Source of the DNA: Prochlorococcus sp. AG-347-E03 | GTDB lineage: Bacteria > Cyanobacteriota > Cyanobacteriia > PCC-6307 > Cyanobiaceae | NCBI GenBank assembly: GCA_003279115.1 | Contig: QCBG01000001.1 | Span: 124,001 to 188,000 of the forward strand | Length of the DNA: 64,000 nt | Direction: 5' to 3' | In this document: positions 13,332 to 28,495 of the stretch, in pieces | Position numbering within the stretch: position 1 is the stretch's first letter | How the letters are laid out: each line of letters opens with the position of its first letter | Position numbers and translations under genes: made by a program | Notes under the pieces: generated by a model | The model's input: the letters and a program-made list of their open reading frames with translations, nothing else | Database searches by the model: none | What the model was told of the DNA's origin: nothing

Positions 13332-13468
13332 TTAATCCTCCCTAGATTTACTCTATTTAATCCTAAAAAAAGCATATTTTCAGTGGCTATATTTTTTATG
13401 AAATGCTTACTATTTAATCCTAAATTCAAAAATTTTAAAAAGATTAATCATCTTCAAAAAATTTGCAA

Positions 13469-13777
13469 TTAGCTCCTTCTCACCCAATCAGGAGATCCAC
13501 CAAACCAGTCAGCAAGATCATCATTTTGGGGATCAAAATGGTTTTCAGTTTCTAAACCATCAAGCCCAAGATTCTGGATTAATCCATTTATGCCATCTGA
13601 ATTTTGTTTCCCATATCTCCTCAAACTGTTAGCTTTCTTTAGCCATGTCCATATAGTTGAATTATGTTTTGAAAACTTTTCTACATAAATTCTTTCCTCC
13701 AACGAAACAGGTTCATCAATTGAAATTCTCTTAACGATATCCTTGATTTTTAAACGAGTCTTGTTTGTTAGAAACAT
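13469..13777 (-). CDS. hypothetical protein
   Basis: 102 aa ORF with acidic/aromatic C-terminus (DDLADWFGGSPDWVRRS). Confidence 0.65.
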   Translation of the reverse strand: MFLTNKTRLKIKDIVKRISIDEPVSLEERIYVEKFSKHNSTIWTWLKKANSLRRYGKQNSDGINGLIQNLGLDGLETENHFDPQNDDLADWFGGSPDWVRRS

Positions 13778-16634: not shown

Positions 16635-16706
16635 ATGACTGATATAAATTACTGGCTAATGAAAAGTGAGCCAGTAGACATAGCAATGGATTTGAAAATT
16701 CGTTAA
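16635..16706 (+). pseudogene. EVE-gene 5' fragment with core repeat copy 1 (junction J1)
   Basis: ATG..MTDINYWLMKSEPVDIAMDLKIR; tactggctaatgaaaagtgagcc at 16650-16672 matches EVE gene 28052-28074. Confidence 0.85.
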
Positions 16707-16710
16707 AAAA

Positions 16711-16732
16711 ATGTTCACGATATGTTCACGAT
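16711..16732 (+). repeat. arm-type direct repeat pair, E1 left end
   Basis: ATGTTCACGAT ATGTTCACGAT, exact tandem with 11-bp period. Confidence 0.85.
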
Positions 16733-16769
16733 TTTTACAGCTAAAATTAATTGAAAAGATTTGATAATA

Positions 16770-16916
16770 ATGGCAATTTCACACTATAGAAAGCAAAGGA
16801 TAATGCTATTAGCAAGACTCAATCTTGGTTTAGCTAGTGAAGATAAAGAAGAAATTGATCTTTATAATCACTATCAAAAAAATATTTATTCAGAACAAAA
16901 TCAACAACAGCAATAA
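16770..16916 (+). CDS. small hypothetical protein
   Basis: 48 aa MAISHYRKQRIMLLARLNLGLASEDKEEIDLYNHYQKNIYSEQNQQQQ. Confidence 0.5.
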   Translation: MAISHYRKQRIMLLARLNLGLASEDKEEIDLYNHYQKNIYSEQNQQQQ

Positions 16917-17364
16917 TTAAACCAGTAAACCAAATTCGAAAAGGTAGACAAAAAAATAATTGTAAGGATACCGTCTATTCTATTGAGCTTGTTGGATGAT
17001 ATGGTCCCAGGATTAAAGATTTAATTAATCATGATTAAATCAATATTAAGGATTCATGCAAAATATTCGAGACCGATTACTTTGTGTGTACGACAGTTCT
17101 GGTGATCGACTCGACCAAGGTTGACCAATTAGATCTTCACTAACCAATGGTCTGCAACACCAAGGTAAATTAACTTTACTAACCTTTACGGAAAGTAAGT
17201 TAAATGATCAGAAATTAAACTTTCGGGATTAATTCTGAACTATCTTAAAAATTAAGTCGTTTGTAAAGCATGAAGAAGTGAGTAATCACTTTTACTTCCA
17301 AAACTAATTTCTAAGAAAATTCTTAATCTGATTATCAAATAGATCTCCTTTCTGTCGTCACCAT

Positions 17365-17395
17365 TAAAAAAAGACCTGTAACAGGGTCTTTTTTT
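17365..17395. terminator. bidirectional-looking terminator
   Basis: AAAAAAAGACC TGTAACA GGGTCTTTTTTT. Confidence 0.8.
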
Positions 17396-17446
17396 ATGTC
17401 TTAAATTTTATTGATTTACTGTTAATCCACAAATAACTAAATATTT

Positions 17447-17578
17447 TTATCTCACACTTTCACGATCAGTTAATGCTTTTTCAAAAGTAGAAAAGAAAGT
17501 ACAAATGCTATTCAATGCAACCAACAAAAGAACTACTGATCTTCCATGTTGATTTAATTGAAGTGTTCTTTGAGTCAT
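17447..17578 (-). CDS. small hypothetical protein
   Basis: 43 aa MTQRTLQLNQHGRSVVLLLVALNSICTFFSTFEKALTDRESVR, just downstream of the 17583-17765 ORF. Confidence 0.5.
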   Translation of the reverse strand: MTQRTLQLNQHGRSVVLLLVALNSICTFFSTFEKALTDRESVR

Positions 17579-17582
17579 ACTC

Positions 17583-17765
17583 TTAATAATCTTCGTTGTA
17601 ATCGGATGGACTACCAGTTAAAGAACAAACAACTGATTCCTCTTTTTTCATTTCTTTTATTTCCATTATTGGTCTGCCCATTTTCTTAAGTACATTTATA
17701 TCTTCTTTAGTCTGACAGCGAGCAATTATGTTTCCTTTTTGATCAAAGCAACTGTAGTAAGTCAT
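17583..17765 (-). CDS. small hypothetical protein
   Basis: 60 aa MTYYSCFDQKGNIIARCQTKEDINVLKKMGRPIMEIKEMKKEESVVC. Confidence 0.65.
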   Translation of the reverse strand: MTYYSCFDQKGNIIARCQTKEDINVLKKMGRPIMEIKEMKKEESVVCSLTGSPSDYNEDY

Positions 17766-17784
17766 TTTATTAAATGCAATTTAA

Positions 17785-17932
17785 AGTTTATGGTTGATTT
17801 CAGTTGTAGCAACGCAACCGACTCATGACAACCATATTTCTAATTTAGGTCAGCCATAGATTTAAATGGCTAAAAAAACATACCTCTTTCCGTACCTAAA
17901 TGTTCCTCAAACCGCACACATTAGATACGCAG
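17785..17932 (-). ncRNA. candidate structured RNA leader (copy B1)
   Basis: homologous to 22172-22310 in inverted orientation; conserved nested stems with compensatory changes. Confidence 0.5.
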
Positions 17933-17992
17933 TGGTTTAATCAAATCAATTAGAACAGAGAGGTAGCTAAACAAATATTCAAAGGAGGATTT

Positions 17993-18130
17993 ATGAGTGG
18001 AGATTTTGAGACTCTTGAAATTAATCAACCAAAAATTAAATATTTAAAACCAGAAGAAAATACAGAATGGTTAGACAAATTAATTAATAATATTGAGGAC
18101 ATGAAGAACAAGATATCAAAAGATTCTTAG
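17993..18130 (+). CDS. small hypothetical protein
   Basis: 45 aa MSGDFETLEINQPKIKYLKPEENTEWLDKLINNIEDMKNKISKDS; AGGAGG ribosome-binding site. Confidence 0.6.
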   Translation: MSGDFETLEINQPKIKYLKPEENTEWLDKLINNIEDMKNKISKDS

Positions 18131-18265
18131 AAATTTAAGAAAGAAACTTTTTTATTTGATTTTTAGTTTTAATGAGAAGCAATTCAAAAAAGAATTTAAA
18201 TTTTGTATTTAAGGTAACCGCTTTTTTGTGAGCATTATTCAGAATAAGAGTCCGACTATTTTTTT

Positions 18266-18409
18266 ATGCAAAAAAATTTAGATGAAAATTCTTATGAAAA
18301 AAGAATTGAAAATATAGAAAAAGGAAAATCTTATTTAAAAAGTAATGGATTTTTCAAATCAAAATCTAATCTATTCGAAGACATACAAAGATTTATTTAT
18401 AAAAGGTAA
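18266..18409 (+). CDS. small hypothetical protein
   Basis: 47 aa MQKNLDENSYEKRIENIEKGKSYLKSNGFF. Confidence 0.4.
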   Translation: MQKNLDENSYEKRIENIEKGKSYLKSNGFFKSKSNLFEDIQRFIYKR

Positions 18410-18528
18410 TTTAAAAAATAATTTTTTACTTTTGATTAATTAAATCTCTCCATAAGCAAGCCATCACATAAAAGAAAGAAAGACTTGAAAAGGTTAGGAG
18501 AAAAAAAGAATGGGTCAATTTTCTATAA

Positions 18529-18633
18529 CTAAATTAATCCAAATAATCCTGCAGTAAAACCAACAGCAGCAAAGAATACGAACTCGATTAAATCTCTTGG
18601 AGCAGAGTTCATAAAAAAACTGATTTGAGTCAT
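18529..18633 (-). CDS. mini membrane protein
   Basis: 34 aa MTQISFFMNSAPRDLIEFVFFAAVGFTAGLFGLI. Confidence 0.5.
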   Translation of the reverse strand: MTQISFFMNSAPRDLIEFVFFAAVGFTAGLFGLI

Positions 18634-18637
18634 AATT

Positions 18638-18832
18638 TTATGACTTGAGAGAATTTCTTAAATCAAACTTTTCAGTTTTTTCAATTTGACACTCAGTATC
18701 GTCTTCAGCACATTTGATTTCAGCTTTTTTGTTCATGTGGCTACTACAACCGCCTGCTATAACTGGTAAACCGGTCGTAGCCGTAAAACCAGTTAAAAAT
18801 GCAAATGCTATATAAGGAAAAAGTCTTTTCAT
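18638..18832 (-). CDS. small secreted Cys-containing protein
   Basis: 64 aa with N-terminal hydrophobic segment. Confidence 0.55.
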   Translation of the reverse strand: MKRLFPYIAFAFLTGFTATTGLPVIAGGCSSHMNKKAEIKCAEDDTECQIEKTEKFDLRNSLKS

Positions 18833-19033
18833 TTAATTGTTACTTTATGTAAACTTATTATGTTACATAAAAAGCTCAAGTGTGAGTAGCTGATAATTCG
18901 CGTGCACCCTATACCAATCATCTAGAGTGATTTAGCAAACCTATGAGTTTTATATTTATCTGAGTATTTTTACTTATATGTTGAGTTGAAGACTTTAAAT
19001 AATTAATGTTTGTTTTGGGTTTATATATAAGTC

Positions 19034-19189
19034 ATGGATAAAGAACATTTAATTGATTTAATTTCTAATAGCATTATTTCTGAGATTAATAATCTCGAAA
19101 TTAATGAGGAAAAATTGATTGCAAATAATTATTTAAATAATCTGAATTTAAATCAGCTTAGAATAATTTCTAAAGAATTTATTTTGTAA
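19034..19189 (+). CDS. small hypothetical protein
   Basis: 51 aa MDKEHLIDLISNSIISEINNLEINEEKLIANNYLNNLNLNQLRIISKEFIL. Confidence 0.45.
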   Translation: MDKEHLIDLISNSIISEINNLEINEEKLIANNYLNNLNLNQLRIISKEFIL

Positions 19190-19237
19190 TTTTTATTAAA
19201 TATTTATTTAAATAAATGAGATTTTCATAACTGTCAT

Positions 19238-19453
19238 TTGAATTTTAATAAGTTAATACCTTTTAATATGAATGATTCAGAAGAATTTAAACCTAGCCTT
19301 AAACAAATCAATGAGGATATAAGACCTACATGGGAAGATATCAAAAAACAATCAGAAGTTTTAGTTAACAAACTTGGTTGCCCTAGATCATTTGTTGGAG
19401 GGATGCTTCATGCAATAGCAAGCGACTTCTCTGATATAAAAACTTGGGAATAA
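19238..19453 (+). CDS. hypothetical protein
   Basis: ORF containing MNDSEEFKPSLKQINEDIRPTWEDIKKQSEVLVNKLG. Confidence 0.6.
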   Translation: MNFNKLIPFNMNDSEEFKPSLKQINEDIRPTWEDIKKQSEVLVNKLGCPRSFVGGMLHAIASDFSDIKTWE

Positions 19454-19676
19454 ATGAAAAACTTATTACTTACACCACTTTTCAAACTATTCAAAAAAAG
19501 CACTTTCCTCTTATCACTAAATCAAAACTCGTGCCCTGTTTTAGATGCTGAAGACATAAAAAAGCAAGAACAGAAAGAAGCTATTGAAAGGTTGTACCCG
19601 TAAACTTTTAACAGAAATGTATCAGATCATATATACGATGCAGCACGGTCCTATACACCCCCATGCCACCCATCAC

Positions 19677-19705
19677 TTTCCCAACCAGGAACTTTGATGG
19701 ATAAT
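19677..19705 (+). repeat. orphan copy of junction-upstream block
   Basis: tttcccaaccaggaactttgatggataat matches blocks upstream of J2, J3, J4 and J5 but no core follows within 100 bp. Confidence 0.6.
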
Positions 19706-19712
19706 ATTTATA

Positions 19713-20246
19713 TCAGCAAAACATTTGAGAAGTAGATATATTTTTTATTGTGAGTAGTTTGATCTCCATAATATTTGTTTGGCTATTAAAACAACCAACT
19801 ACTGGCAAACCAGTACTAGCAAAACTTCCTGTGGGAGCTGCCAAAATTTGCGTGCGATATCCATACCCACCCCTAAAAAATATTTGATAAAAACCGCTCG
19901 GAGTAAACCAAGAATTACCTGAGGGAGTATAAGTAGACATGTTTTTACATCTTGATGGATCAGGAACTCTACAAGCATTTACGGAGACATACTCCGAAAT
20001 AGAGTAAGCACCTCTTGGATAAGTTCCAAATTCCATGTAATAAGATTGAACTGCCTTCATATATGAATTAATCAAAACAGCCGCTTCCTTTTGTCTTGCT
20101 TTGACGGAGGCGTTTTGAAAGCTTGGTATAGCTATTCCAGAAAGAATTCCAATTATTACTACAACAACTATTAACTCAACTAATGTAAATGCATCTTCAT
20201 TTCTTCTTATACGAAAATTTCTAATAAGAAAAAGAAATTTATTCAT
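19713..20246 (-). CDS. type IV pilin-like protein
   Basis: prepilin N-methylation motif DAFTLVELIVVVVIIGILSGIAIPSF; likely start at MNKFLFLIRNF. Confidence 0.9.
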   Translation of the reverse strand: MNKFLFLIRNFRIRRNEDAFTLVELIVVVVIIGILSGIAIPSFQNASVKARQKEAAVLINSYMKAVQSYYMEFGTYPRGAYSISEYVSVNACRVPDPSRCKNMSTYTPSGNSWFTPSGFYQIFFRGGYGYRTQILAAPTGSFASTGLPVVGCFNSQTNIMEIKLLTIKNISTSQMFC

Positions 20247-20368
20247 CACAAATAATTCTATTCTTCTTAAAGTAGGTAATCTTAAGAGGAAATTTTTTTT
20301 AGGTCCAAATACCATAACAATTCTATATGACTGGAAATTCCAAACAACTTAAAATACAAAGAACAAGC

Positions 20369-20397
20369 TTTCCTAAATAGGAACTTTGATGGATAAT
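20369..20397 (+). promoter_or_regulatory. junction-upstream block before J2 (promoter-like)
   Basis: TTTCCT-17 bp-GATAAT: tttcctaaataggaactttgatggataat. Confidence 0.5.
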
Positions 20398-20463
20398 AAA
20401 TTCATACAAAAAAGTTTGAGTAGCACCTACTCGAAGCTTTAAAATTCGCTGAGATCCACTGGT

Positions 20464-20508
20464 ATGAATGAAGAAAAGTTTTGGCTAATGAAAAGTGAGC
20501 GCGTCTAG
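20464..20508 (+). pseudogene. EVE-gene 5' fragment with core repeat copy 2 (J2)
   Basis: MNEEKFWLMKSERV*; tggctaatgaaaagtgagc at 20482-20500. Confidence 0.85.
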
Positions 20509-20539
20509 CTATTACTGGGATTTCAGGGAATCGTAATTT

Positions 20540-20561
20540 TTTACTCAAACTTTACTCAAAC
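20540..20561 (+). repeat. arm-type direct repeat pair, E2 left end
   Basis: TTTACTCAAAC TTTACTCAAAC, 11-bp period. Confidence 0.9.
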
Positions 20562-20859
20562 TTTTAAAGACTAAAAAACTAACCGATATTGAGTTCGGTT
20601 CGAAGTAAGAAAACCCTGAAACTATTAATCTCTTTTGATGAATAGTCTTCAAATGACAAAGACACAAAGCACAAAAACTACATTAAGTAGCAAGCTAAGT
20701 GTCTTGGAAGTAATCTGCATTAATTAAAAAGGTTTTTGTACTCGTGTGTAGGAGTGCGGGGTTAACCTTGAAACCGCTAGGCTCAAGTCCTTACGAAAAG
20801 GACAAGTCCTTAGACCACTTATACCTAAGAAACACACTCATCACAAGTAAAAATAACTT

Positions 20860-20905
20860 GATTGACAGTCGATCTAAACTTAGAGGGATAAAACCCTCTT
20901 TTTTT
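20860..20905 (+). repeat. 46-bp repeat containing a terminator hairpin (copy 2)
   Basis: gattgacagtcgatctaaacttagagggataaaaccctcttttttt. Confidence 0.85.
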
Positions 20906-20906
20906 G

Positions 20907-21080
20907 ATGAGAAACAAATTTAAAAGATCAGCTTTTTTTGATATGTCTGATGACCTTTTCTATCGAATATCATTAATAGGATTTTTAGTTGTTTTTAGCT
21001 CAATGGTATTTTTCCTAACGAAATATAGAGAAAAAAAAGTTAATAATATAAGCCAGATTTCCATAACTGAACAAATTTAA
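20907..21080 (+). CDS. small single-TM protein
   Basis: 57 aa MRNKFKRSAFFDMSDDLFYRISLIGFLVVFSSMVFFLTKYREKKVNN. Confidence 0.55.
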   Translation: MRNKFKRSAFFDMSDDLFYRISLIGFLVVFSSMVFFLTKYREKKVNNISQISITEQI

Positions 21081-21094
21081 TTTTTAAAGCAGTA

Positions 21095-21448
21095 ATGCAA
21101 AGATTTATAATTTCCCCGTTATTTGCTTTATCTAGATTTTTTATAAATACTTACGGAATATTTTTAAAGTTTTTTCTCCAATTAAATGGTGGTTATTGGT
21201 CAAGAATTGGTTTAACCGAAAATATTACAGAGGAAAGAATTAAAAAAAGAAGATTATATATCTTACCTTTTTATTTTCTTCTGGCTTTATTGTTTGGATT
21301 ACTATCTGCTCTTTATTGGTATTTGGTGATTCTATATGTACCACTTTTGATAGAAAGATATTTAAGTCCATTGAATAACAGTATTGCTTTAATAATTGCT
21401 TTCGCTACTTTCTTTAGCTGGCTTTATATTCTTTGTAAAACAAAATAA
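21095..21448 (+). CDS. membrane protein
   Basis: 117 aa ORF with several hydrophobic segments. Confidence 0.65.
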   Translation: MQRFIISPLFALSRFFINTYGIFLKFFLQLNGGYWSRIGLTENITEERIKKRRLYILPFYFLLALLFGLLSALYWYLVILYVPLLIERYLSPLNNSIALIIAFATFFSWLYILCKTK

Positions 21449-21484
21449 ACAAAGTATTATCTATCTGCAAAAGCAAAAGATACT

Positions 21485-21619
21485 TTATTTAAAATCTTCT
21501 TTTGTTTGATTATCATTTTCTCTTACCCAATAGTCCTCATATTTTAAATTTCTTTTTTGATAATCTAATGCGTTCATGTTCTTATCGAGTATGGCAAAAG
21601 GAGAATTAGTAAATTTCAT
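21485..21619 (-). CDS. microprotein related to the Cys-tailed family (lacks Cys tail)
   Basis: 44 aa MKFTNSPFAILDKNMNALDYQKRNLKYEDYWVRENDNQTKEDFK; N-terminus similar to the 10921 ORF. Confidence 0.55.
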   Translation of the reverse strand: MKFTNSPFAILDKNMNALDYQKRNLKYEDYWVRENDNQTKEDFK

Positions 21620-21677
21620 GGCATAACACCTCTAAAAAAAATAGTTTATTGAATATTTAATAGATATGAGATTTTAT

Positions 21678-21779
21678 TTATCTCAAGTAACTAGATCCTC
21701 TATAAGTAAGCTTTATTGTTTTCTCTTCTTGGCTCTTGCAATATACGAAAGATTTGCCGTTAAAATACATGTTTACCAT
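21678..21779 (-). CDS. conserved 33-aa protein MVNMYFNGKSFVYCKSQEEKTIKLTYRGSSYLR (copy 2)
   Basis: paralogue of 8067-8168; AGGAG ribosome-binding site. Confidence 0.75.
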   Translation of the reverse strand: MVNMYFNGKSFVYCKSQEEKTIKLTYRGSSYLR

Positions 21780-21798
21780 TATGCAGCTCCTGGTCTTG

Positions 21799-21824
21799 AT
21801 CAAGTCCCCGTCCTATGGCTTGAT
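21799..21824 (-). ncRNA. 5'-leader hairpin (copy 2)
   Basis: ATCAAG-CCATAGGACGGGGA-CTTGAT; compensatory terminal pair relative to copy 1. Confidence 0.6.
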
Positions 21825-21883
21825 TCGTACTGCGGTCTATCTAATAGTAGATCGGACGATTTGGTAGCATTTACTACACTTTA

Positions 21884-21912
21884 TTTATAGAGTATTTATA
21901 CTCAGTTGTCAA
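21884..21912 (-). promoter_or_regulatory. sigma70-type promoter of leader copy 2
   Basis: minus strand TTGACA-17 bp-TATAAA. Confidence 0.75.
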
Positions 21913-21930
21913 CCCTTAAGATTAAAATTC

Positions 21931-22113
21931 TCAGTCGCAATAGACTAAACAATGCTGATTAGTTGGATGTTCTCTACATTCCCTCTTCCAATAGTCTTCA
22001 AATAAATGGTTATCTCTATCAAGATTTCTTGTTATTTCTTCCATTCTGTTTCCAGCATAATTAAATGCTTTTAGGTATCTTGGAAGGATTGTGAATTGAT
22101 TGAATAGTTTCAT
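21931..22113 (-). CDS. Cys-tailed microprotein family member
   Basis: 60 aa ...YWKRECREHPTNQHCLVYCD; AGGAGG ribosome-binding site. Confidence 0.7.
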   Translation of the reverse strand: MKLFNQFTILPRYLKAFNYAGNRMEEITRNLDRDNHLFEDYWKRECREHPTNQHCLVYCD

Positions 22114-22171
22114 TTAGACCTCCTAGATCTATACTTATATTGTCCTCCTATAGCCTTGAAATTTATAGGTC

Positions 22172-22310
22172 GGTTTGAGGAACTATTAGGTACGGGAAGA
22201 GGTATATATTTTGAATCAAAAAATACTAAAGCAGTCCTAAAATTAATACATGGTTGTCATGAGGCAGTTGCAGGGATACAACTGAAGCCAACCATAAATT
22301 ATTAGAGATC
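22172..22310 (+). ncRNA. candidate structured RNA (copy B2)
   Basis: inverted homologue of 17785-17932; shared stems. Confidence 0.45.
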
Positions 22311-22564
22311 AATTCAAGATTTAAAACACACTCATTATTTAAAAAGAAATCTTCTCCACTTTAGATAAAACTAAAATAAATCAGGATTTGAAAACAATGT
22401 AATCATAGATACCAACAGGTATTTAGCTAATTGATTATATATTTAACACACGAGTTAACCCGTTCCAATTTGTTGACTCTGAGGTTTTACCGTTGATTCC
22501 TTATCTTCTGAAAGTTGTTCCTTGCAGCTTTAGATTAAAAAACGGTCTTTATTTAATCTAAACC

Positions 22565-22702
22565 ATGCAAAAGAAAATCGTAAAAAAATATGCTGAATTA
22601 ATGCATCAGGCGCAACAAGCTACTGGAAGAAAAGAAGCAGTTGGACTAATACATAAAGCAGCAAAGTTAAAAACTAAATTTGATAATTACGAGATGATGT
22701 GA
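22565..22702 (+). CDS. small hypothetical protein
   Basis: 45 aa MQKKIVKKYAELMHQAQQATGRKEAVGLIHKAAKLKTKFDNYEMM. Confidence 0.55.
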   Translation: MQKKIVKKYAELMHQAQQATGRKEAVGLIHKAAKLKTKFDNYEMM

Positions 22703-22842
22703 TCATCTACAAAGCAATTTTCCCAAATAAGAATGTCATTCTTAAATAAATTCTCGATTAAAGATTTTTCCTTCAATATTTCCAACAGATAAGCGTAATT
22801 TATAAAGGGGTACCGTCATGATATATAGAGGAAAGGGGTACA

Positions 22843-22871
22843 CTTTCCTAAATAGAAACTTTGATGGATAA
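22843..22871 (+). promoter_or_regulatory. junction-upstream block before J3 (promoter-like)
   Basis: tttcctaaatagaaactttgatggataat. Confidence 0.5.
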
Positions 22872-22891
22872 TAAATTCATATTCAAAGAAG

Positions 22892-22913
22892 TTACCCAAA
22901 CTTTACTCAAACC
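22892..22913 (+). repeat. arm-type direct repeat pair, E2 right end
   Basis: TTACCCAAACT TTACTCAAACC, 11-bp period; same sequence class as the E2 left end. Confidence 0.85.
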
Positions 22914-22934
22914 CTATATATTCGCCGAGATCCT

Positions 22935-23051
22935 ATGGTACAACAGGAACCTAGCTACTGGCTAATGAACCATGTGCCAGTAGTCATAGCAATGGATCTC
23001 AAAAATCAGATAAATTCCGTCCACACGTCGTCCACACTTTTAGTTGATTAA
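22935..23051 (+). pseudogene. EVE-gene 5' fragment with core repeat copy 3 (J3)
   Basis: MVQQEPSYWLMNHVPVVIAMDLKNQ..., N-terminus parallels the real gene MPQQEPSFWLMKSEP. Confidence 0.85.
23018..23039 (+). repeat. arm-type direct repeat pair, E3 left end
   Basis: CGTCCACACGT CGTCCACACTT, 11-bp period. Confidence 0.9.
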
Positions 23052-23150
23052 AACTCCATCAAGAAAATCCTAAAAAGTTAAATCTGGTACTGACAAATAT
23101 TTTAAAAATAAATACTATATACCTAAATAATTATCTAGGAATTTAAATTC

Positions 23151-23579
23151 ATGATTAAGAATTTATTCATAGCAATCGCTTTTGCTTTGATGCTCATCAA
23201 CCCAAATATTTCTATAGCTGCCGAATCGCCTGTAGATGTACAAGAAGTCTTTGTAGGTTCTGAAACTATGGATGGTGATGCTCTTAAATATCCAAAAGGA
23301 AAAGCAGAAATAAGATTACAAAGAGTCGAATTAGCTGAGGGAGGGATAGTCCCGCTTCACTCTCATCCAATTCCATTATTAGGTAATGTTGAGCAAGGTA
23401 CAATTGTTGTCAAAAGACAAGGTATGGAAGATCTTACCTATACAGCGGGGGATACATTTATAGTTGGTCCAAAGACACCAAAACATACAATGGGTAATGC
23501 AAAAACCGATAATGCAATAGTTTGGTTCGCAGCAATTGGAGCAAAAGATGTCCCAATTCTAATTCCTGCAGAAGGATAA
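23151..23579 (+). CDS. secreted cupin-domain protein
   Basis: signal peptide; GGIVPLHSHPIPLLGNVEQGTIVVKR cupin motif. Confidence 0.85.
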   Translation: MIKNLFIAIAFALMLINPNISIAAESPVDVQEVFVGSETMDGDALKYPKGKAEIRLQRVELAEGGIVPLHSHPIPLLGNVEQGTIVVKRQGMEDLTYTAGDTFIVGPKTPKHTMGNAKTDNAIVWFAAIGAKDVPILIPAEG

Positions 23580-23617
23580 TTTTTAACTTTGAGTCGATAA
23601 TTTTTATTTAATTTAAA

Positions 23618-24142
23618 TCAACGGGGACTATTCAAGTCCCCTATTTTTTCTTTTCGCATTACTTCAAACATACTTAAATATTGAAGTGGAAACACAGTAG
23701 CAAGATTCTCTATTCGTTCTTCATCAAGTTCTATTCCTTCTGGTAATTTTTTAATCAATTTTGGGATTGCTAATTTTGTTTCTGCTTTGCAGAAATTAAT
23801 CCGATAAGTTGCTTCTCTTCTAATGTTGGCTTTTATTAATCCATCCTCATTAAAAGCAGAATTAATATCTAACTTGTTGCCCTTAAGGAGTGCAATTAAA
23901 ACTTGATCCGCAATTCTCAAAGCTTTATCTGGTTCTGTGCCCTTTGTTATTCCAAATATCCAAGTACAAGCTCCCACACCAAATGAACGTGCAATACATT
24001 CATCATTACCGATTTCATCGCAGGGTAACCTAAAAGACTTTTCAAGTTTCTCTAAATCATAACCACTTTCACCTTCTGGGAATCCCGCAAAAGTTGTAAC
24101 TGGAAATATCAAAAAAAGGATTAGAGCTATAAATTCTTTCAT
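23618..24142 (-). CDS. hypothetical secreted protein
   Basis: 174 aa ORF with signal-like N-terminus MKEFIALILFLIFPVTTFAG. Confidence 0.65.
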   Translation of the reverse strand: MKEFIALILFLIFPVTTFAGFPEGESGYDLEKLEKSFRLPCDEIGNDECIARSFGVGACTWIFGITKGTEPDKALRIADQVLIALLKGNKLDINSAFNEDGLIKANIRREATYRINFCKAETKLAIPKLIKKLPEGIELDEERIENLATVFPLQYLSMFEVMRKEKIGDLNSPR

Positions 24143-24182
24143 AGATCGACCTCGTCAATCAAAATAAAGGTTGAAGGTTTAT

Positions 24183-24449
24183 TCAAAAGAATACCTCCTC
24201 CTCTTCAGCATCCTCATCATCCTCATTAGGCATATTCTCAGGAAGACTTAATGGGACATTCATTTCTGCACTAAGGAAATGAAGCAGTCTCAATGAAAGC
24301 TCTTGGTCAATCTTTCGGAGTGGATTAATTCGATCGACTGTTGGATTTGTTGAATCCTCAACTCCTTGAAGTTTTCCTCTAACACGAGTTAAATCTTTAA
24401 GAAGTTTAGTACTAGCTTTTGATGCTGGTATGTGTGTTGGTAAATTCAT
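24183..24449 (-). CDS. hypothetical protein with acidic C-terminus
   Basis: 88 aa ORF ending NEDDEDAEEEEVFF. Confidence 0.65.
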   Translation of the reverse strand: MNLPTHIPASKASTKLLKDLTRVRGKLQGVEDSTNPTVDRINPLRKIDQELSLRLLHFLSAEMNVPLSLPENMPNEDDEDAEEEEVFF

Positions 24450-24454
24450 TGAAA

Positions 24455-24667
24455 TTAAAATTCCTTTTGGTGAAATGGTTTAACTTGCATTATTTGTTGG
24501 TTTATTAGTTCCGTTAGAACTCGAAATTGGTACCAATAATGGATTTCGAAAGAAAATCTATTTGAAAAATTTGTATAGTCTCCTGACTTATACATTTGAT
24601 GGAGTCTTTGTAATCGCTCCATTAAGAGCATTATTTCTTCAGTCATTTTCATCATTAGCGTGAGCAC
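24455..24667 (-). CDS. hypothetical protein
   Basis: 70 aa ORF between two same-strand ORFs; exact start uncertain (overlaps upstream ORF). Confidence 0.55.
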   Translation of the reverse strand: MLTLMMKMTEEIMLLMERLQRLHQMYKSGDYTNFSNRFSFEIHYWYQFRVLTELINQQIMQVKPFHQKEF

Positions 24668-25100
24668 AAAGAATTAATGCTCTAACCTTCTCAAACTCAT
24701 CTCTGAGATCTTCGACTTCATCTCTAAGCTTTCTATTTTCAATAAGTTGTATTTCATGTCTCTGAACAGCTCTGTTTTCAGAGTTATTTAGTTTTAAATG
24801 AATTTTCTGAACCTCAATTGCTGTATCTTCAAGGTTTTCTTTAATAACCTCAAAGTCTTGATATTTATAATCAACAGCTCTTAGACCTCTTCCATTTGTT
24901 GGGTCAACCCGAATAATCTTTCCGATTATTTTATTGAGAACATCTAATGGAAAAGTTTCAGAACAAAATAGGATTGTGTGCTCATGTCCGTCATGTTCAC
25001 CTAATCCGACAGCGTATTCACCTTTTTTCCCTTCGCGAGAAGGAATGAGGACGCGAAGAAGTTTCGCAGTCTGAAAGACTGGATAATTTTCGTTTGACAT
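24639..25100 (-). CDS. hypothetical protein with coiled-coil C-terminus
   Basis: 153 aa ORF MSNENYPVFQTAKLLRVLIPSREGKKGEYAVGLGEHDGHEHTILFCSE... Confidence 0.65.
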   Translation of the reverse strand: MSNENYPVFQTAKLLRVLIPSREGKKGEYAVGLGEHDGHEHTILFCSETFPLDVLNKIIGKIIRVDPTNGRGLRAVDYKYQDFEVIKENLEDTAIEVQKIHLKLNNSENRAVQRHEIQLIENRKLRDEVEDLRDEFEKVRALILCAHANDEND

Positions 25101-25105
25101 ATCTA

Positions 25106-25678
25106 CTAAACCCTTTTAACTAAATGTTTTTTTGTTGGCTGTCGTTTTAATTTCAAACTATCTCGGTTGGATCCTTCTCCCTTTGGATTTCCAAATTCTT
25201 GTTTCACCATGAAGGTTGAACTAATCAACAGGAACCCAATTTTCTGATCTTCATTTAAAGTCTTATTTATTTTTTTCTTTTCTAAATCTTCTACAACTTC
25301 ATAAATATTCGTTGGATCTGCCCAGAATTTGTAATCATGCTCCAAAACCTTACTAAATTTTAATCTCCTTTTATTTTCATCCTTAGAAATGTCCTCAGAG
25401 TAGATTCCCTCTTTGAGCATTCTTTTTCTTTTGTCTTTAAAAATGAGACCGAATTTTTTCCTGTAGAACTTTTCTAGCTCCTTTGGAGGTGTAAATTCTT
25501 CAGGAATGTAAATTTCATCGTTAGGAGTTAATCTTGGTAATTCTCCTTTATCAAAAAGAATACGTAACCAGCTCTCTCGTCTTACCCAATAATTTTTAAA
25601 ATTCAAATAATTGGGCTGGGATATTGCATTATCTTTATTATTTTCAGATAAGCAAATCCCACGGTAATAATGTGCCAT
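25106..25678 (-). CDS. hypothetical protein
   Basis: 190 aa ORF MAHYYRGICLSENNKDNAISQPNYLNFKNYWVRRESWLR... Confidence 0.65.
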   Translation of the reverse strand: MAHYYRGICLSENNKDNAISQPNYLNFKNYWVRRESWLRILFDKGELPRLTPNDEIYIPEEFTPPKELEKFYRKKFGLIFKDKRKRMLKEGIYSEDISKDENKRRLKFSKVLEHDYKFWADPTNIYEVVEDLEKKKINKTLNEDQKIGFLLISSTFMVKQEFGNPKGEGSNRDSLKLKRQPTKKHLVKRV

Positions 25679-25992
25679 GAGTTTAAAAATAATTAACTTG
25701 CTTACCCGCCTTGTACTTCAAAAGCGCTTCTAATCACATTGGCTGGTCTATATGTGAGTGAAGTGATCGAATTGAAATCTTTATTGCTTATATTTATAAA
25801 CCAAAAATAAAAAAAAATCTACCCCCAATTTAAAACTTTTTTAAAAATAGCTTTTAAATATACCTGTCTTCCTCCAAACCTCTTCCAACAAATGCTTATA
25901 TTCTTTTCTTGCATCTTCAACAGTTTCTACTCTTATACCTTTAATAACTTATTAACTTGATCTTTTATAAAAGCAACCTTAACTAACCATCA

Positions 25993-26021
25993 CTTTCCTA
26001 AATAGATAATTTGATGGATAA
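25993..26021 (+). promoter_or_regulatory. junction-upstream block before J4 (promoter-like)
   Basis: tttcctaaatagataatttgatggataat. Confidence 0.5.
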
Positions 26022-26051
26022 TAAGTTAAGAAAAGGGTGTAGAAGCTACTT

Positions 26052-26073
26052 TATCCACACCCGGTCCACACTT
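26052..26073 (+). repeat. arm-type direct repeat pair, E3 right end
   Basis: TATCCACACCC GGTCCACACTT, 11-bp period; same class as the E3 left end. Confidence 0.85.
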
Positions 26074-26098
26074 CGCAATATTCTTCAAACCCCTTGAT

Positions 26099-26131
26099 AT
26101 GACTGATATTAACTACTGGCTAATGAAATAG
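26099..26131 (+). pseudogene. EVE-gene 5' fragment with core repeat copy 4 (J4)
   Basis: MTDINYWLMK*; tactggctaatgaaa at 26114-26128. Confidence 0.85.
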
Positions 26132-26185
26132 GAGCAAGATGCATTTTGCTAGTCATAGCAAGGGTTTTATTTTTTACAAAAAATT

Positions 26186-26207
26186 TCATTCGAACCTCAT
26201 TCGAACT
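26186..26207 (+). repeat. arm-type direct repeat pair, E4 left end
   Basis: TCATTCGAACC TCATTCGAACT, 11-bp period. Confidence 0.9.
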
Positions 26208-26309
26208 TTTTAGTGATTGAAAATTATCGAATAACTTAATCAATAGTCATTAATAGTTTGTTGATTGGAATAGAAATAATTACTAATATGCTTCTAATTA
26301 TTGAAAAAC

Positions 26310-27077
26310 ATGGCACTAATTAAATGCTATGAGTGTGGTAAGGAAATTTCTGACAAGGCTCCATCTTGTCCTCATTGTGGAGCGCCACAATTAGTTTCTA
26401 AAAATAAAGAAGTTAAGGCAAAAAAAACTATCAATTTTAGTAAGTATCTAAAACCGATTCCACTCGGATTAGGTCTAATATTAATACCCTTAATCGGAGC
26501 CGCTGCAATTCCTTTATATCAAGCCAATGGCAATTTAAAATCAGTAGTTTGGAGATTCAAAAACGAAGATTTCATTAAATCTAGATGTGCTTTTAGACAT
26601 TTAGAAAAATCATCTTTACCAAAAAATTGCAGATCATTACTTTATAAATTAGGAGAGAAAGCAGAAAAGGTTTCTTTTTTTTCACATAGTGCTTGTATGA
26701 CCAGAAAGAAATATGAAAGTCCTAAAGTTTATAACACTTGCATTGATAAGTGGGACAAAGTATATGCGAGAAGACAAAGAATAAAAAAGAAAGATGTTTT
26801 CTATCACAAGGGTCAAATGTATAGAGCCTCAAAATCCTGTCCTGAAGGTAAACAGTTTATTTGGGATGTAAAAAAGGGATTTTTATCTAAAGATAAAGTT
26901 TATGAAGTAGGTTGCCTATCTGCTTATGAATTGCAAAGCCTGAAGGATGCGAGGAATAAAGGTGGGGGTTCTGGCTGGAAAGTGCCTAATAATCAAGCAC
27001 AACAAAACAGAATGAGAATTCAAACCAATGAATATAAAAGGTACTTAGATAATTATTCAAAAGATATGGGTTGGTAG
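26310..27077 (+). CDS. zinc-ribbon membrane-anchored protein
   Basis: MALIKCYECGKEISDKAPSCPHCGAPQ zinc ribbon followed by TM segment. Confidence 0.8.
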   Translation: MALIKCYECGKEISDKAPSCPHCGAPQLVSKNKEVKAKKTINFSKYLKPIPLGLGLILIPLIGAAAIPLYQANGNLKSVVWRFKNEDFIKSRCAFRHLEKSSLPKNCRSLLYKLGEKAEKVSFFSHSACMTRKKYESPKVYNTCIDKWDKVYARRQRIKKKDVFYHKGQMYRASKSCPEGKQFIWDVKKGFLSKDKVYEVGCLSAYELQSLKDARNKGGGSGWKVPNNQAQQNRMRIQTNEYKRYLDNYSKDMGW

Positions 27078-27533
27078 ATGAAAAGATTATTAATCCCACT
27101 ACTAGCTGCTCTCGCATTACCTACTGCTGTTAATGCTGATCCACTGAGGAATATCCTAAAACATACTCTTAAGGGTGGTACTAAAGAAACTATTAGGAAC
27201 GAATCAAAGAAGAACAAAAAATATGTATCTCCTTCAACTAACTTTTTTGGGAAATACAGATCAAAAGTTGAGGCAGAAGAAGCATGTAATATTTGGATTA
27301 CAAAAGGTGTTGAGTATAGCGTCGAGATTCCTGGTAAGCCACGTGGAAGATATCTTTATTTAACTAGAAATGGTTATGTTATAGAAACGATAAACCGCTA
27401 CTGTAGATTTGAAAGAGATACTAGTCAATACTTAGGTTATGAATATACAGGAGTCAAAAAAAATGAGCATTTCAAAGCCAATGATAGGGATAGGCGTAAA
27501 AAAGCTAACATAAAAAAATATTTTAAATACTAA
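27078..27533 (+). CDS. secreted hypothetical protein
   Basis: signal peptide LLAALALPTAVNAD; directly abuts previous stop (TAGATG). Confidence 0.65.
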   Translation: MKRLLIPLLAALALPTAVNADPLRNILKHTLKGGTKETIRNESKKNKKYVSPSTNFFGKYRSKVEAEEACNIWITKGVEYSVEIPGKPRGRYLYLTRNGYVIETINRYCRFERDTSQYLGYEYTGVKKNEHFKANDRDRRKKANIKKYFKY

Positions 27534-27863
27534 ATGAAAAGCCTTCTACTAACACTACTTGCGGCTATTTCATTACCTACTGCTGTTAATGCTGATTCAC
27601 TTGCAACCCAAAAAGCATATGCAGCATCAATACTTGGAGGAAATTTATGCTTTCTTAGGCAAGGAAGATTAACAAAACAATCCTTTGTTTTAAATGTAGA
27701 AAATTTGATGCTAAAAAAAGGATATGATTTAGATCATTTATATAAAGATGACGTTAGAAAAGCTGGAAAACTAATTGCAAATAAATTAGATAATGATTGC
27801 ACTAGCCAAGATTTTCTTAGAGATAGAGAATTTATGTTGCGAATTGCAGAGACTTTAAGATGA
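27534..27863 (+). CDS. secreted hypothetical protein
   Basis: near-identical signal peptide LLAAISLPTAVNAD; directly abuts previous stop (TAAATG). Confidence 0.65.
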   Translation: MKSLLLTLLAAISLPTAVNADSLATQKAYAASILGGNLCFLRQGRLTKQSFVLNVENLMLKKGYDLDHLYKDDVRKAGKLIANKLDNDCTSQDFLRDREFMLRIAETLR

Positions 27864-27939
27864 AAAAAAAATATTATAAATCTCGCTAAGGGTTTACATT
27901 TACGCACGGCGAAGGAGTTAACCCCATACCGCCCATTAC

Positions 27940-27967
27940 TTTCCTAAATAGGGACTTTGATGGATAA
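27940..27967 (+). promoter_or_regulatory. junction-upstream block before the intact EVE gene (promoter-like)
   Basis: tttcctaaatagggactttgatggataat. Confidence 0.5.
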
Positions 27968-27987
27968 TGAATTTATATCTGAACGAG

Positions 27988-28009
27988 TTATTCTAACTTC
28001 ATTCGAACC
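27988..28009 (+). repeat. arm-type direct repeat pair, E4 right end
   Basis: TTATTCTAACT TCATTCGAACC, 11-bp period; same class as the E4 left end. Confidence 0.85.
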
Positions 28010-28030
28010 TGAAATTTTCGCCGAGATCCC

Positions 28031-28495
28031 ATGCCACAACAGGAACCTAGCTTCTGGCTAATGAAAAGTGAGCCTGATGCTTACAGCATAGATACTTTAA
28101 AAAATGATGGTATCACTTTATGGGATGGAATAAGGAATTATCAAGCTCGAAATTTTATGAGGAAAATGAAAAAAGGAGATAAGGTTTTTTTCTATCATTC
28201 GAACTGTAAACCCCCAGGTATTGTTGGACTTATGGAGGTGATAGATCTAGATATTGTTGATCCTACCCAATTTGATAAAAATTCAAAATATTATGATCCA
28301 AAATCAAAACCTGAAAATCCTAGATGGGATTGTGTAAAAGTAAAATACTTATCTAAGTCAAATAAGATTTTAAGCTTACCGGAATTAAAGATTTTATTTA
28401 GTGAGGATGAGCTAATGGTCGTAAAAAAAGGAAATAGGTTATCCATAGTGCCTATCCGAGATGATACAGCAAAAATATTGCTAGGAAAAATATAA
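28031..28495 (+). CDS. EVE-domain (PUA-like) protein; target gene of the array
   Basis: MPQQEPSFWLMKSEPDAYSIDTL..WDGIRNYQARNFMRKMKKGDKVFFYHSN. Confidence 0.9.
   Translation: MPQQEPSFWLMKSEPDAYSIDTLKNDGITLWDGIRNYQARNFMRKMKKGDKVFFYHSNCKPPGIVGLMEVIDLDIVDPTQFDKNSKYYDPKSKPENPRWDCVKVKYLSKSNKILSLPELKILFSEDELMVVKKGNRLSIVPIRDDTAKILLGKI

What the first reader, a model, noticed from the sequence alone, without database searches (positions are those of the whole stretch)
16635..28075. Tandem array of four integrative cassettes in the 5' end of an EVE-domain gene
A core, (TAC)TGGCTAATGAAAAGTGAGC(C), occurs in the same orientation at 16650, 20481, 22956, 26114 and in the intact gene at 28052; the 22956 and 26114 copies are shortened or diverged after TGGCTAATGAA. 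Each upstream copy sits in a short ORF that begins with a start codon and aligns in frame with the EVE protein N-terminus: MTDINYWLMKSEP, MNEEKFWLMKSE, MVQQEPSYWLMN, MTDINYWLMK, real MPQQEPSFWLMKSEP. The intervals (about 3.8, 2.5, 3.2 and 1.9 kb) carry unrelated small accessory genes. The layout fits successive site-specific integrations at one attachment site inside the conserved WLMKSEP codons, each leaving a gene-start fragment behind. As I recall the literature, mobile elements reported in Prochlorococcus (tycheposons) mostly use tRNA genes, so a protein-gene 5' end used by a stacked array would be unusual.
Basis: partly seen in the sequence, partly recalled or inferred. Interest (0 to 1): 0.94.

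Follow-up and report, generated by a model that had tools for sequence, protein, structure and literature searches.

The report
Stacked mobile gene cassettes in Prochlorococcus
Across the ocean cyanobacterium Prochlorococcus, small mobile gene cassettes stack up one after another inside the first codons of one ordinary gene, each bringing that gene a fresh start; most have lost their own insertion enzyme and appear to borrow it from larger relatives at the same spot, which makes the gene a genus-wide landing site for nutrient and anti-virus genes.

Summary
The five core copies share an invariant 11 bp (TGGCTAATGAA). Arrays of 0 to at least 7 cassettes occur at this EVE-gene start across the genus, including a closed chromosome. 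AG-424-P23 shares 97% identical flanks with the window but has a different cassette, breaking exactly at the core; the window's second cassette is 99.7% identical to one in a genome whose flank is only 87% identical; a clean empty site exists. A divergent 528-aa tyrosine recombinase (lambda Int/Cre/Xer fold) lies beside such a core in all seven intact copies found in 267 genomes. Its N-terminal domain differs between lineages with different arms; its catalytic half is conserved. The window's four cassettes lack it and are best read as non-autonomous satellites moved in trans. Excision and expression were not tested. This is a new variant of known tandem-accretion islands.

The parts
16635..16663 (+). 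Leftmost core: 5' gene fragment MTDINYWLMK ending in the 11-bp core TGGCTAATGAA (16653-16663); left junction of the array, probably the gene start that preceded the array
   Evidence: window vs L062 97.4% identical over 6677 nt up to 16671, then divergent
16653..20481 (+). Cassette 1 (3.8 kb), composite; 16996-19728 is 95-96% identical to a cassette body (family C0) shared by at least 9 other genomes
   Evidence: orphan 39-nt motif at 19676 marks the lost internal boundary
16711..16732 (+). Tandem arm pair ATGTTCACGAT x2 at the left end of cassette 1
19676..19714 (+). Orphan copy of the 39-nt right-end motif without a core: relic of a lost boundary inside cassette 1
20368..20406 (+). 39-nt right-end motif (D1) of cassette 1
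20464..20492 (+). Replacement gene start (MNEEKFWLMK) plus core: junction of cassettes 1 and 2
20482..22958 (+). Cassette 2 (2.5 kb); 99.7% identical over 2284 nt to a cassette in L075 whose downstream flank is only 87.4% identical to the window's
20540..20561 (+). Left tandem arms TTTACTCAAAC x2 of cassette 2, the class also next to integrase clade B
22843..22881 (+). 39-nt right-end motif (D1) of cassette 2
22891..22913 (+). Right arms of cassette 2, GTTACCCAAACTTTACTCAAAC, matching its left arms
22935..22969 (+). Replacement gene start (MVQQEPSYWLMN) plus core: junction of cassettes 2 and 3
22959..26116 (+). Cassette 3 (3.2 kb): cupin protein 23151-23579 and four small ORFs on the other strand
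23018..23039 (+). Left tandem arms CGTCCACAC x2 of cassette 3, the class also found beside a split integrase in L203
25993..26031 (+). 39-nt right-end motif (D1) of cassette 3
26052..26073 (+). Right arms of cassette 3, TATCCACACCCGGTCCACACTT, matching its left arms
26099..26127 (+). Replacement gene start (MTDINYWLMK) plus core: junction of cassettes 3 and 4
26117..28054 (+). Cassette 4 (1.9 kb): zinc-ribbon protein 26301-27077 and two small secreted-type ORFs
26187..26208 (+). Left tandem arms CATTCGAACCT/CATTCGAACTT of cassette 4
27939..27977 (+). 39-nt right-end motif (D1) of cassette 4
27997..28011 (+). Right arm of cassette 4 (CTTCATTCGAACCTG), matching its left arms
28031..28495 (+). 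Intact EVE-domain gene; its start codon and first codons up to the core at 28055 come from cassette 4

Best explanation
The region is a tandem array of small integrative elements at one attachment site in the 5' end of the EVE gene. SHOWN by sequence: attB is TGGCTAATGAA within the WLMK codons. Each element carries a tandem 11-bp arm pair at its left end, and at its right end arms plus a replacement start codon. Arrays differ among genomes by whole elements with breaks at the core, and near-identical elements occur in diverged lineages. INFERRED: a tyrosine integrase of the 528-aa family found here binds the arms with its N-terminal domain and the core with its C-terminal half. It recombines circular attP with attB, and the element's right end gives the gene a new start, so the gene stays open and a new core remains for the next arrival. 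Larger elements (5.6-12 kb) carry the integrase. The four here, like most, are integrase-less satellites moved in trans when a compatible integrase enters the cell. The 39-nt motif at the right end of satellites is probably the promoter for the restored gene, or else an accessory recombination or transfer site. Homologous recombination between cassettes also swaps bodies and ends and makes fusions such as cassette 1.
For: Exact junctions: filled L130 vs empty L123 is 95.8% identical over 3582 nt, ends at the last base of the 11-bp core, and resumes at the gene start. Window vs L062: 97.4% up to 16671, 96.7% over 9.9 kb downstream, unrelated cassettes between. Horizontal transfer: cassette 2 vs L075 99.7% over 2284 nt, flank 87.4% over 9958 nt. 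Same cassette family in 9 genomes with different neighbours. Matched arm class at both ends: 36 of 65 elements; permutation mean 13.6, maximum 26 in 10,000. Arm pair TTTACYCAAAC: 61 of 61 hits on EVE contigs lie upstream within 30 kb on the same strand, reversed-pattern control zero. In-frame start codon: 81/88 EVE sites and 54/63 internal cores; off-frame at most 4; random 11%. Integrase: all 7 intact copies in 267 genomes start 85-120 bp right of a core of this type; the five on contigs reaching EVE lie 5.6-12 kb upstream of it. Arm class follows the N-domain (residues 1-180 44-50% identical between clades, last 60 columns 92%). Fold: 17 of 19 family members hit PF00589; the model matches Cre, XerA and lambda Int.
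Against: No excised circle, transfer or expression was observed. The window's genome (88% complete) has no integrase of this family, so this array is presumably static in that cell. 29 of 65 elements have non-matching end classes, and one cassette body occurs with several arm classes, so homologous recombination clearly contributes. No intact integrase was found for the arm classes of cassettes 1 and 4. In the EVE-site integrases the residue aligned with catalytic Arg I is Ser (GMSPEE versus GLRPxEL), so catalysis is not proven. Neither integrase nor cassette was found in phage, plasmid or IMG/VR records, so the vehicle is unknown.
Confidence: 0.87

Rival explanations
1. The array grew mainly by homologous recombination: the conserved gene and shared cassette ends act as homology for swapping whole blocks between strains, and the att sites are relics of ancient integrations.
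For: No integrase in the window's genome; one cassette body with different ends; 29 of 65 end pairs do not match; cassette 1 is a fusion.
Against: Breakpoints fall exactly on the core with near-identical flanks on both sides. Intact integrases sit at the same core in seven genomes. Arm pairs keep near-perfect 11-bp repeats in many copies.
Confidence: 0.1
2. These are tycheposons, the tRNA-targeting Prochlorococcus elements, that shifted to a new target.
For: Same genus, tyrosine recombinase, cargo for nutrients (PhoX) and defence.
Against: No tRNA in any integrase-bearing locus scanned. tRNA-Ser-linked 423-aa recombinases of the genus do not match the EVE-site family model. The cassettes (median 2.8 kb) are mostly below the 4-200 kb cited for tycheposons (PMC10872708). 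No reference tycheposon sequence was available to compare.
Confidence: 0.12
3. An integron-like system in which a chromosomal recombinase (the 389-aa protein near a cobO-like gene in almost every genome) collects cassettes.
For: Small cargo, all boundaries in one orientation, growth next to one gene; a resident tyrosine recombinase is present in most genomes of the genus.
Against: Arm pairs belong with the 528-aa integrases that sit beside them. No attC-like sites were seen. The 389-aa protein barely matches the 528-aa family (E=0.0085 in a permissive search).
Confidence: 0.04
4. Ordinary segmental duplication or pseudogene decay of the EVE gene, or assembly error.
For: Repeated gene-start fragments.
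Against: Similarity stops at the core and at the element ends; the same kind of array appears in a single-contig complete chromosome (G097) and in dozens of independent assemblies.
Confidence: 0.01

Closest known systems
CIMEs and tandem accretion of ICE/IME elements (reviewed in PMC5704250)
   Same: Elements stack at one att site; derivatives without integrase keep attL and attR and depend on a helper.
   Different: Here the integrase-less cassettes are the majority (median 2.8 kb), share their own 39-nt right-end motif absent from the integrase-bearing elements, carry no conjugation gene that was recognised, and use the 5' end of a protein gene.
dusA-specific genomic islands (PMC4482086)
   Same: Integrases that target the 5' end of a protein-coding gene; the island supplies a new 5' end and keeps the gene readable.
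   Different: Different gene, and no arrays of integrase-less cassettes reported in that paper ('tandem' does not occur in its text).
Tycheposons of Prochlorococcus (as cited in PMC10872708)
   Same: Same host genus, tyrosine recombinase, nutrient and defence cargo.
   Different: Protein gene instead of tRNA; recombinase unlike the tRNA-linked ones tested here; cassettes mostly smaller and integrase-less.
Additive flexible genomic islands (Alteromonas, PMC4119200; Methylophilaceae, PMC10872708)
   Same: Variable number of cassettes added at one conserved site with repeated att fragments.
   Different: tRNA gene ends; no arm classes or 39-nt motif described in the passages read.
Phage lambda Int and attP
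   Same: Predicted fold, N-terminal domain that covaries with the arms, short core, tandem arm sites about one helical turn apart.
   Different: Arm pairs with 11-bp period in several sequence classes, all sharing one core; Ser at the Arg I position.

Membership tests
Tyrosine-recombinase integrative element | Recombinase of the Phage_integrase fold encoded by the element | tested here: met
   Met for the autonomous relatives: 17 of 19 family members hit PF00589; model matches Cre, XerA, lambda Int. The window's four cassettes encode none
Tyrosine-recombinase integrative element | Site-specific junctions with a shared core | tested here: met
   11-bp core at every junction; exact empty/filled comparison
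Tyrosine-recombinase integrative element | Intact catalytic residues R-K-(H/K)-R-(H/W)-Y | tested here: inconclusive
   K, second R and Y conserved; Arg I aligned with Ser in EVE-site copies and close relatives
CIME (att-flanked element without integrase) | attL and attR retained, integration and transfer genes absent | tested here: met
   67 integrase-less intervals with both ends
CIME (att-flanked element without integrase) | Derived from a conjugative or mobilizable element | tested here: inconclusive
   Degraded integrase pieces occur in arrays; no relaxase or secretion gene was recognised among the proteins scanned
CIME (att-flanked element without integrase) | Mobilised by a helper | not testable with these tools
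   Needs an experiment
5'-end protein-gene island (dusA type) | Island replaces the gene's 5' end and keeps it open | tested here: met
   In-frame ATG in 81/88 EVE sites
5'-end protein-gene island (dusA type) | Integrase of the dusA-specific family | not tested
   No dusA integrase sequence was compared
Tycheposon | Integration at a tRNA gene | tested here: not met
   No tRNA in L199-L202, L216, L062, L137, L139
Tycheposon | Tycheposon recombinase clade and hallmark genes | not testable with these tools
   Defining paper and sequences not held; tRNA-Ser-linked recombinases of the genus do not match the family model
Integron | intI integrase, attI, attC cassette sites | tested here: not met
   Boundaries are a fixed 11-bp core with tandem arms, and both cassette ends carry arms

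The most novel reading that the evidence does not exclude
A genus-wide cassette-trading system that works like an integron but is built from lambda-type parts: one gene start is the shared port, a large pool of integrase-less satellites with their own conserved 39-nt element circulates, and a small set of integrases with one conserved catalytic half and interchangeable arm-reading domains decides, by an arm code, which satellites move.
Probability: 0.35. Interest if true: 0.88.

Novelty: new variant of a known kind. Interest (0 to 1): 0.74.

Why it matters
Prochlorococcus genomes are small and streamlined yet its shared gene pool is very large, and how genes move between cells is only partly known. 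This site gives a second route beside tRNA-linked elements, with defined ends, likely helpers and cargo such as the alkaline phosphatase PhoX, a type I restriction system and defence-like helicases. In the 78 loci that could be classified, 76 EVE genes have a start that looks element-derived and only 2 look native (the sample is the closest relatives, not random). Since dozens of single-cell genomes and some complete genomes carry it, arm-code specificity and cassette flux can be tested directly.

Tried and rejected
Viral contig match to the core (L142): inside a phage-like coding region without arms, taken as chance. Arm-like repeats in three IMG/VR contigs: no core, 39-nt motif or matching integrase. 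Integrase and cassettes in phage, plasmid and IMG/VR records: none found. First structure model from 7 close sequences: poor (pLDDT 48); replaced by a 19-sequence model (pLDDT 78). Sequence search of PDB with the narrow alignment: nothing useful. hhalign of the narrow alignment with other recombinases of the genus: weak. 39-nt motif as a sigma-70 consensus promoter: no match, so the promoter idea stays a guess. The conserved 80-aa cysteine-rich protein as a marker of the elements: it also has a genus-wide chromosomal paralogue, so it is not specific. A first test of end matching in one orientation only was weaker (20 of 48 against 9 expected) because some right arms are inverted. Assembly artefact and gene duplication: rejected by complete genome G097 and by L062.
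Full report
OBSERVATION. The five core copies are real, in one orientation, and not chance. The part shared by all is TGGCTAATGAA. To its left the sequence varies because each element brings its own gene start; to its right it varies because each element brings its own left end.

ANATOMY. Right of each of the first four cores, after about 40-60 nt, stands a perfect or near-perfect 11-bp tandem pair, and for intervals 2, 3 and 4 the same motif stands left of the next core. About 115 nt upstream of the last four cores lies a 39-nt motif. Across 107 right ends its mean pairwise identity is 83%, against 38-44% on either side, and it was found 123 times on the EVE strand and once on the other. An orphan copy at 19676 suggests that interval 1 is a fusion; its body (16996-19728) is 95-96% identical to a cassette family found in other genomes.

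POPULATION EVIDENCE. The window lies in a draft genome of a genus with 267 held genomes, 224 of which match the EVE protein; named close relatives are Prochlorococcus single-cell genomes and isolates. In 80 named loci array content varies widely. Of 78 loci that could be classified, 46 have the 39-nt type right end before the gene, 30 have arm-type right ends without it, and 2 (L123, L137) look native (the loci are the nearest relatives and not a random sample). Filled L130 and empty L123 are 95.8% identical up to the last base of the core and again from the gene start. L062 (AG-424-P23) has the window's flanks (97.4% and 96.7%) with one different cassette where the window has four. The window's second cassette is 99.7% identical over 2284 nt to one in L075, while the flank is 87.4% identical. 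A single-contig complete chromosome (G097) holds eight cores, the gene's own included, over about 21 kb, that is seven cassettes in a row.

INTEGRASE. One long cassette (L105) encodes a 528-aa protein just right of the core. Relatives or fragments occur in 22 of 267 genomes; the seven intact ones all start 85-120 bp right of such a core, and where the contig reaches that far the EVE gene follows 5.6-12 kb downstream. Two lineages are clear: one with CATACCAGCAA arms, one with TTTACCCAAAC or TTTATCCAAAC arms. Between them residues 1-180 are 44-50% identical, while the last 60 columns are 92% identical. A split copy sits beside CGTCCACAC arms and a fragment beside GTTCACACA arms. Arms of cassettes 2 and 3 thus have partner integrases; those of cassettes 1 and 4 do not yet. 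Pfam alone is sub-threshold for the EVE-site protein (E=0.003), but 17 of 19 family members hit PF00589 and the predicted fold matches Cre, XerA and lambda integrase at E about 1e-8. The catalytic Lys, second Arg and Tyr are conserved, but the first Arg is Ser in this branch. A related integrase with core and arms lies 14.7 kb upstream of the EVE gene in another genus of the family, so the system is not confined to one genus.

TWO CLASSES OF ELEMENT. Integrase-bearing elements (five distinct with both ends, 5.6-12 kb) have matched arms at both ends and no 39-nt motif; 57 of 67 integrase-less intervals (median 2.8 kb; a few loci are the same genome twice) end in the 39-nt motif. Matching of left and right arm class is far above shuffles (36 of 65; mean 13.6). 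Cargo includes PhoX, a type I restriction system, a Hhe-like helicase, a methyltransferase operon, a phosphoesterase and many unknown small proteins.

MECHANISM. Shown: site, ends, variation by whole cassettes, horizontal movement, restored start codon (81/88 and 54/63 against 11% at random positions). Inferred: the 528-aa integrase reads the arms with its N-domain and cuts the core; satellites are moved in trans; the 39-nt motif drives or marks the restored gene. Homologous recombination adds shuffling: the same body is found with different arms.

COMPARISON. The layout works like tandem accretion with CIMEs (PMC5704250) at a dusA-type 5' site (PMC4482086), in the host of tycheposons. It fails the tRNA criterion for tycheposons, and the genus's tRNA-Ser-linked recombinases do not match its integrase model; the defining paper is not held, so membership is not settled. 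I found no paper in the held library that describes an EVE attachment site in Prochlorococcus; most subscription papers are missing from that library, so prior description cannot be excluded.

Noticed in passing
window 21799-21861 (-): Glutamine-II riboswitch (RF01704, 59 bits) inside cassette 2, upstream of a 44-aa ORF at 21485-21619 (-): a riboswitch travelling in a mobile cassette.
   Followed up: no
L216:4463-6046, residues around 298-303: EVE-site integrases and close relatives carry GMSPEE where distant homologues carry GLRPxEL: the catalytic Arg I position is Ser.
   Followed up: partly
window 17787-17914 and 22171-22298: A 128-nt inverted repeat, 77% complementary, shared by cassettes 1 and 2 in opposite orientation.
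   Followed up: no
L001:835-2004: A 389-aa tyrosine recombinase next to a cobO-like gene appears in most genomes of the genus; its role is unknown to me.
   Followed up: no
L277:10244 (-); L202:1576: Arm pairs with only the right half of the core, one of them far from the EVE gene: possible integration at secondary sites.
   Followed up: no
L216:13066-13383 and 13433-13672: Two small proteins (106 and 80 aa, the latter cysteine-rich) at the right end of integrase-bearing elements; candidates for accessory recombination factors. The 80-aa one has a chromosomal paralogue across the genus.
   Followed up: partly
L073:2031-6892; L070:4635-9623: Defence-like cargo in cassettes: an operon with a PDC-M33-like protein and a cytosine methylase, and a 1663-aa Hhe/PDC-S37-like helicase-nuclease.
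   Followed up: partly
L213:6039-7562: A related 507-aa recombinase lies between two flavodiiron-type genes in another genome, next to a ParB/methylase-like gene: another element family not at a tRNA.
   Followed up: no
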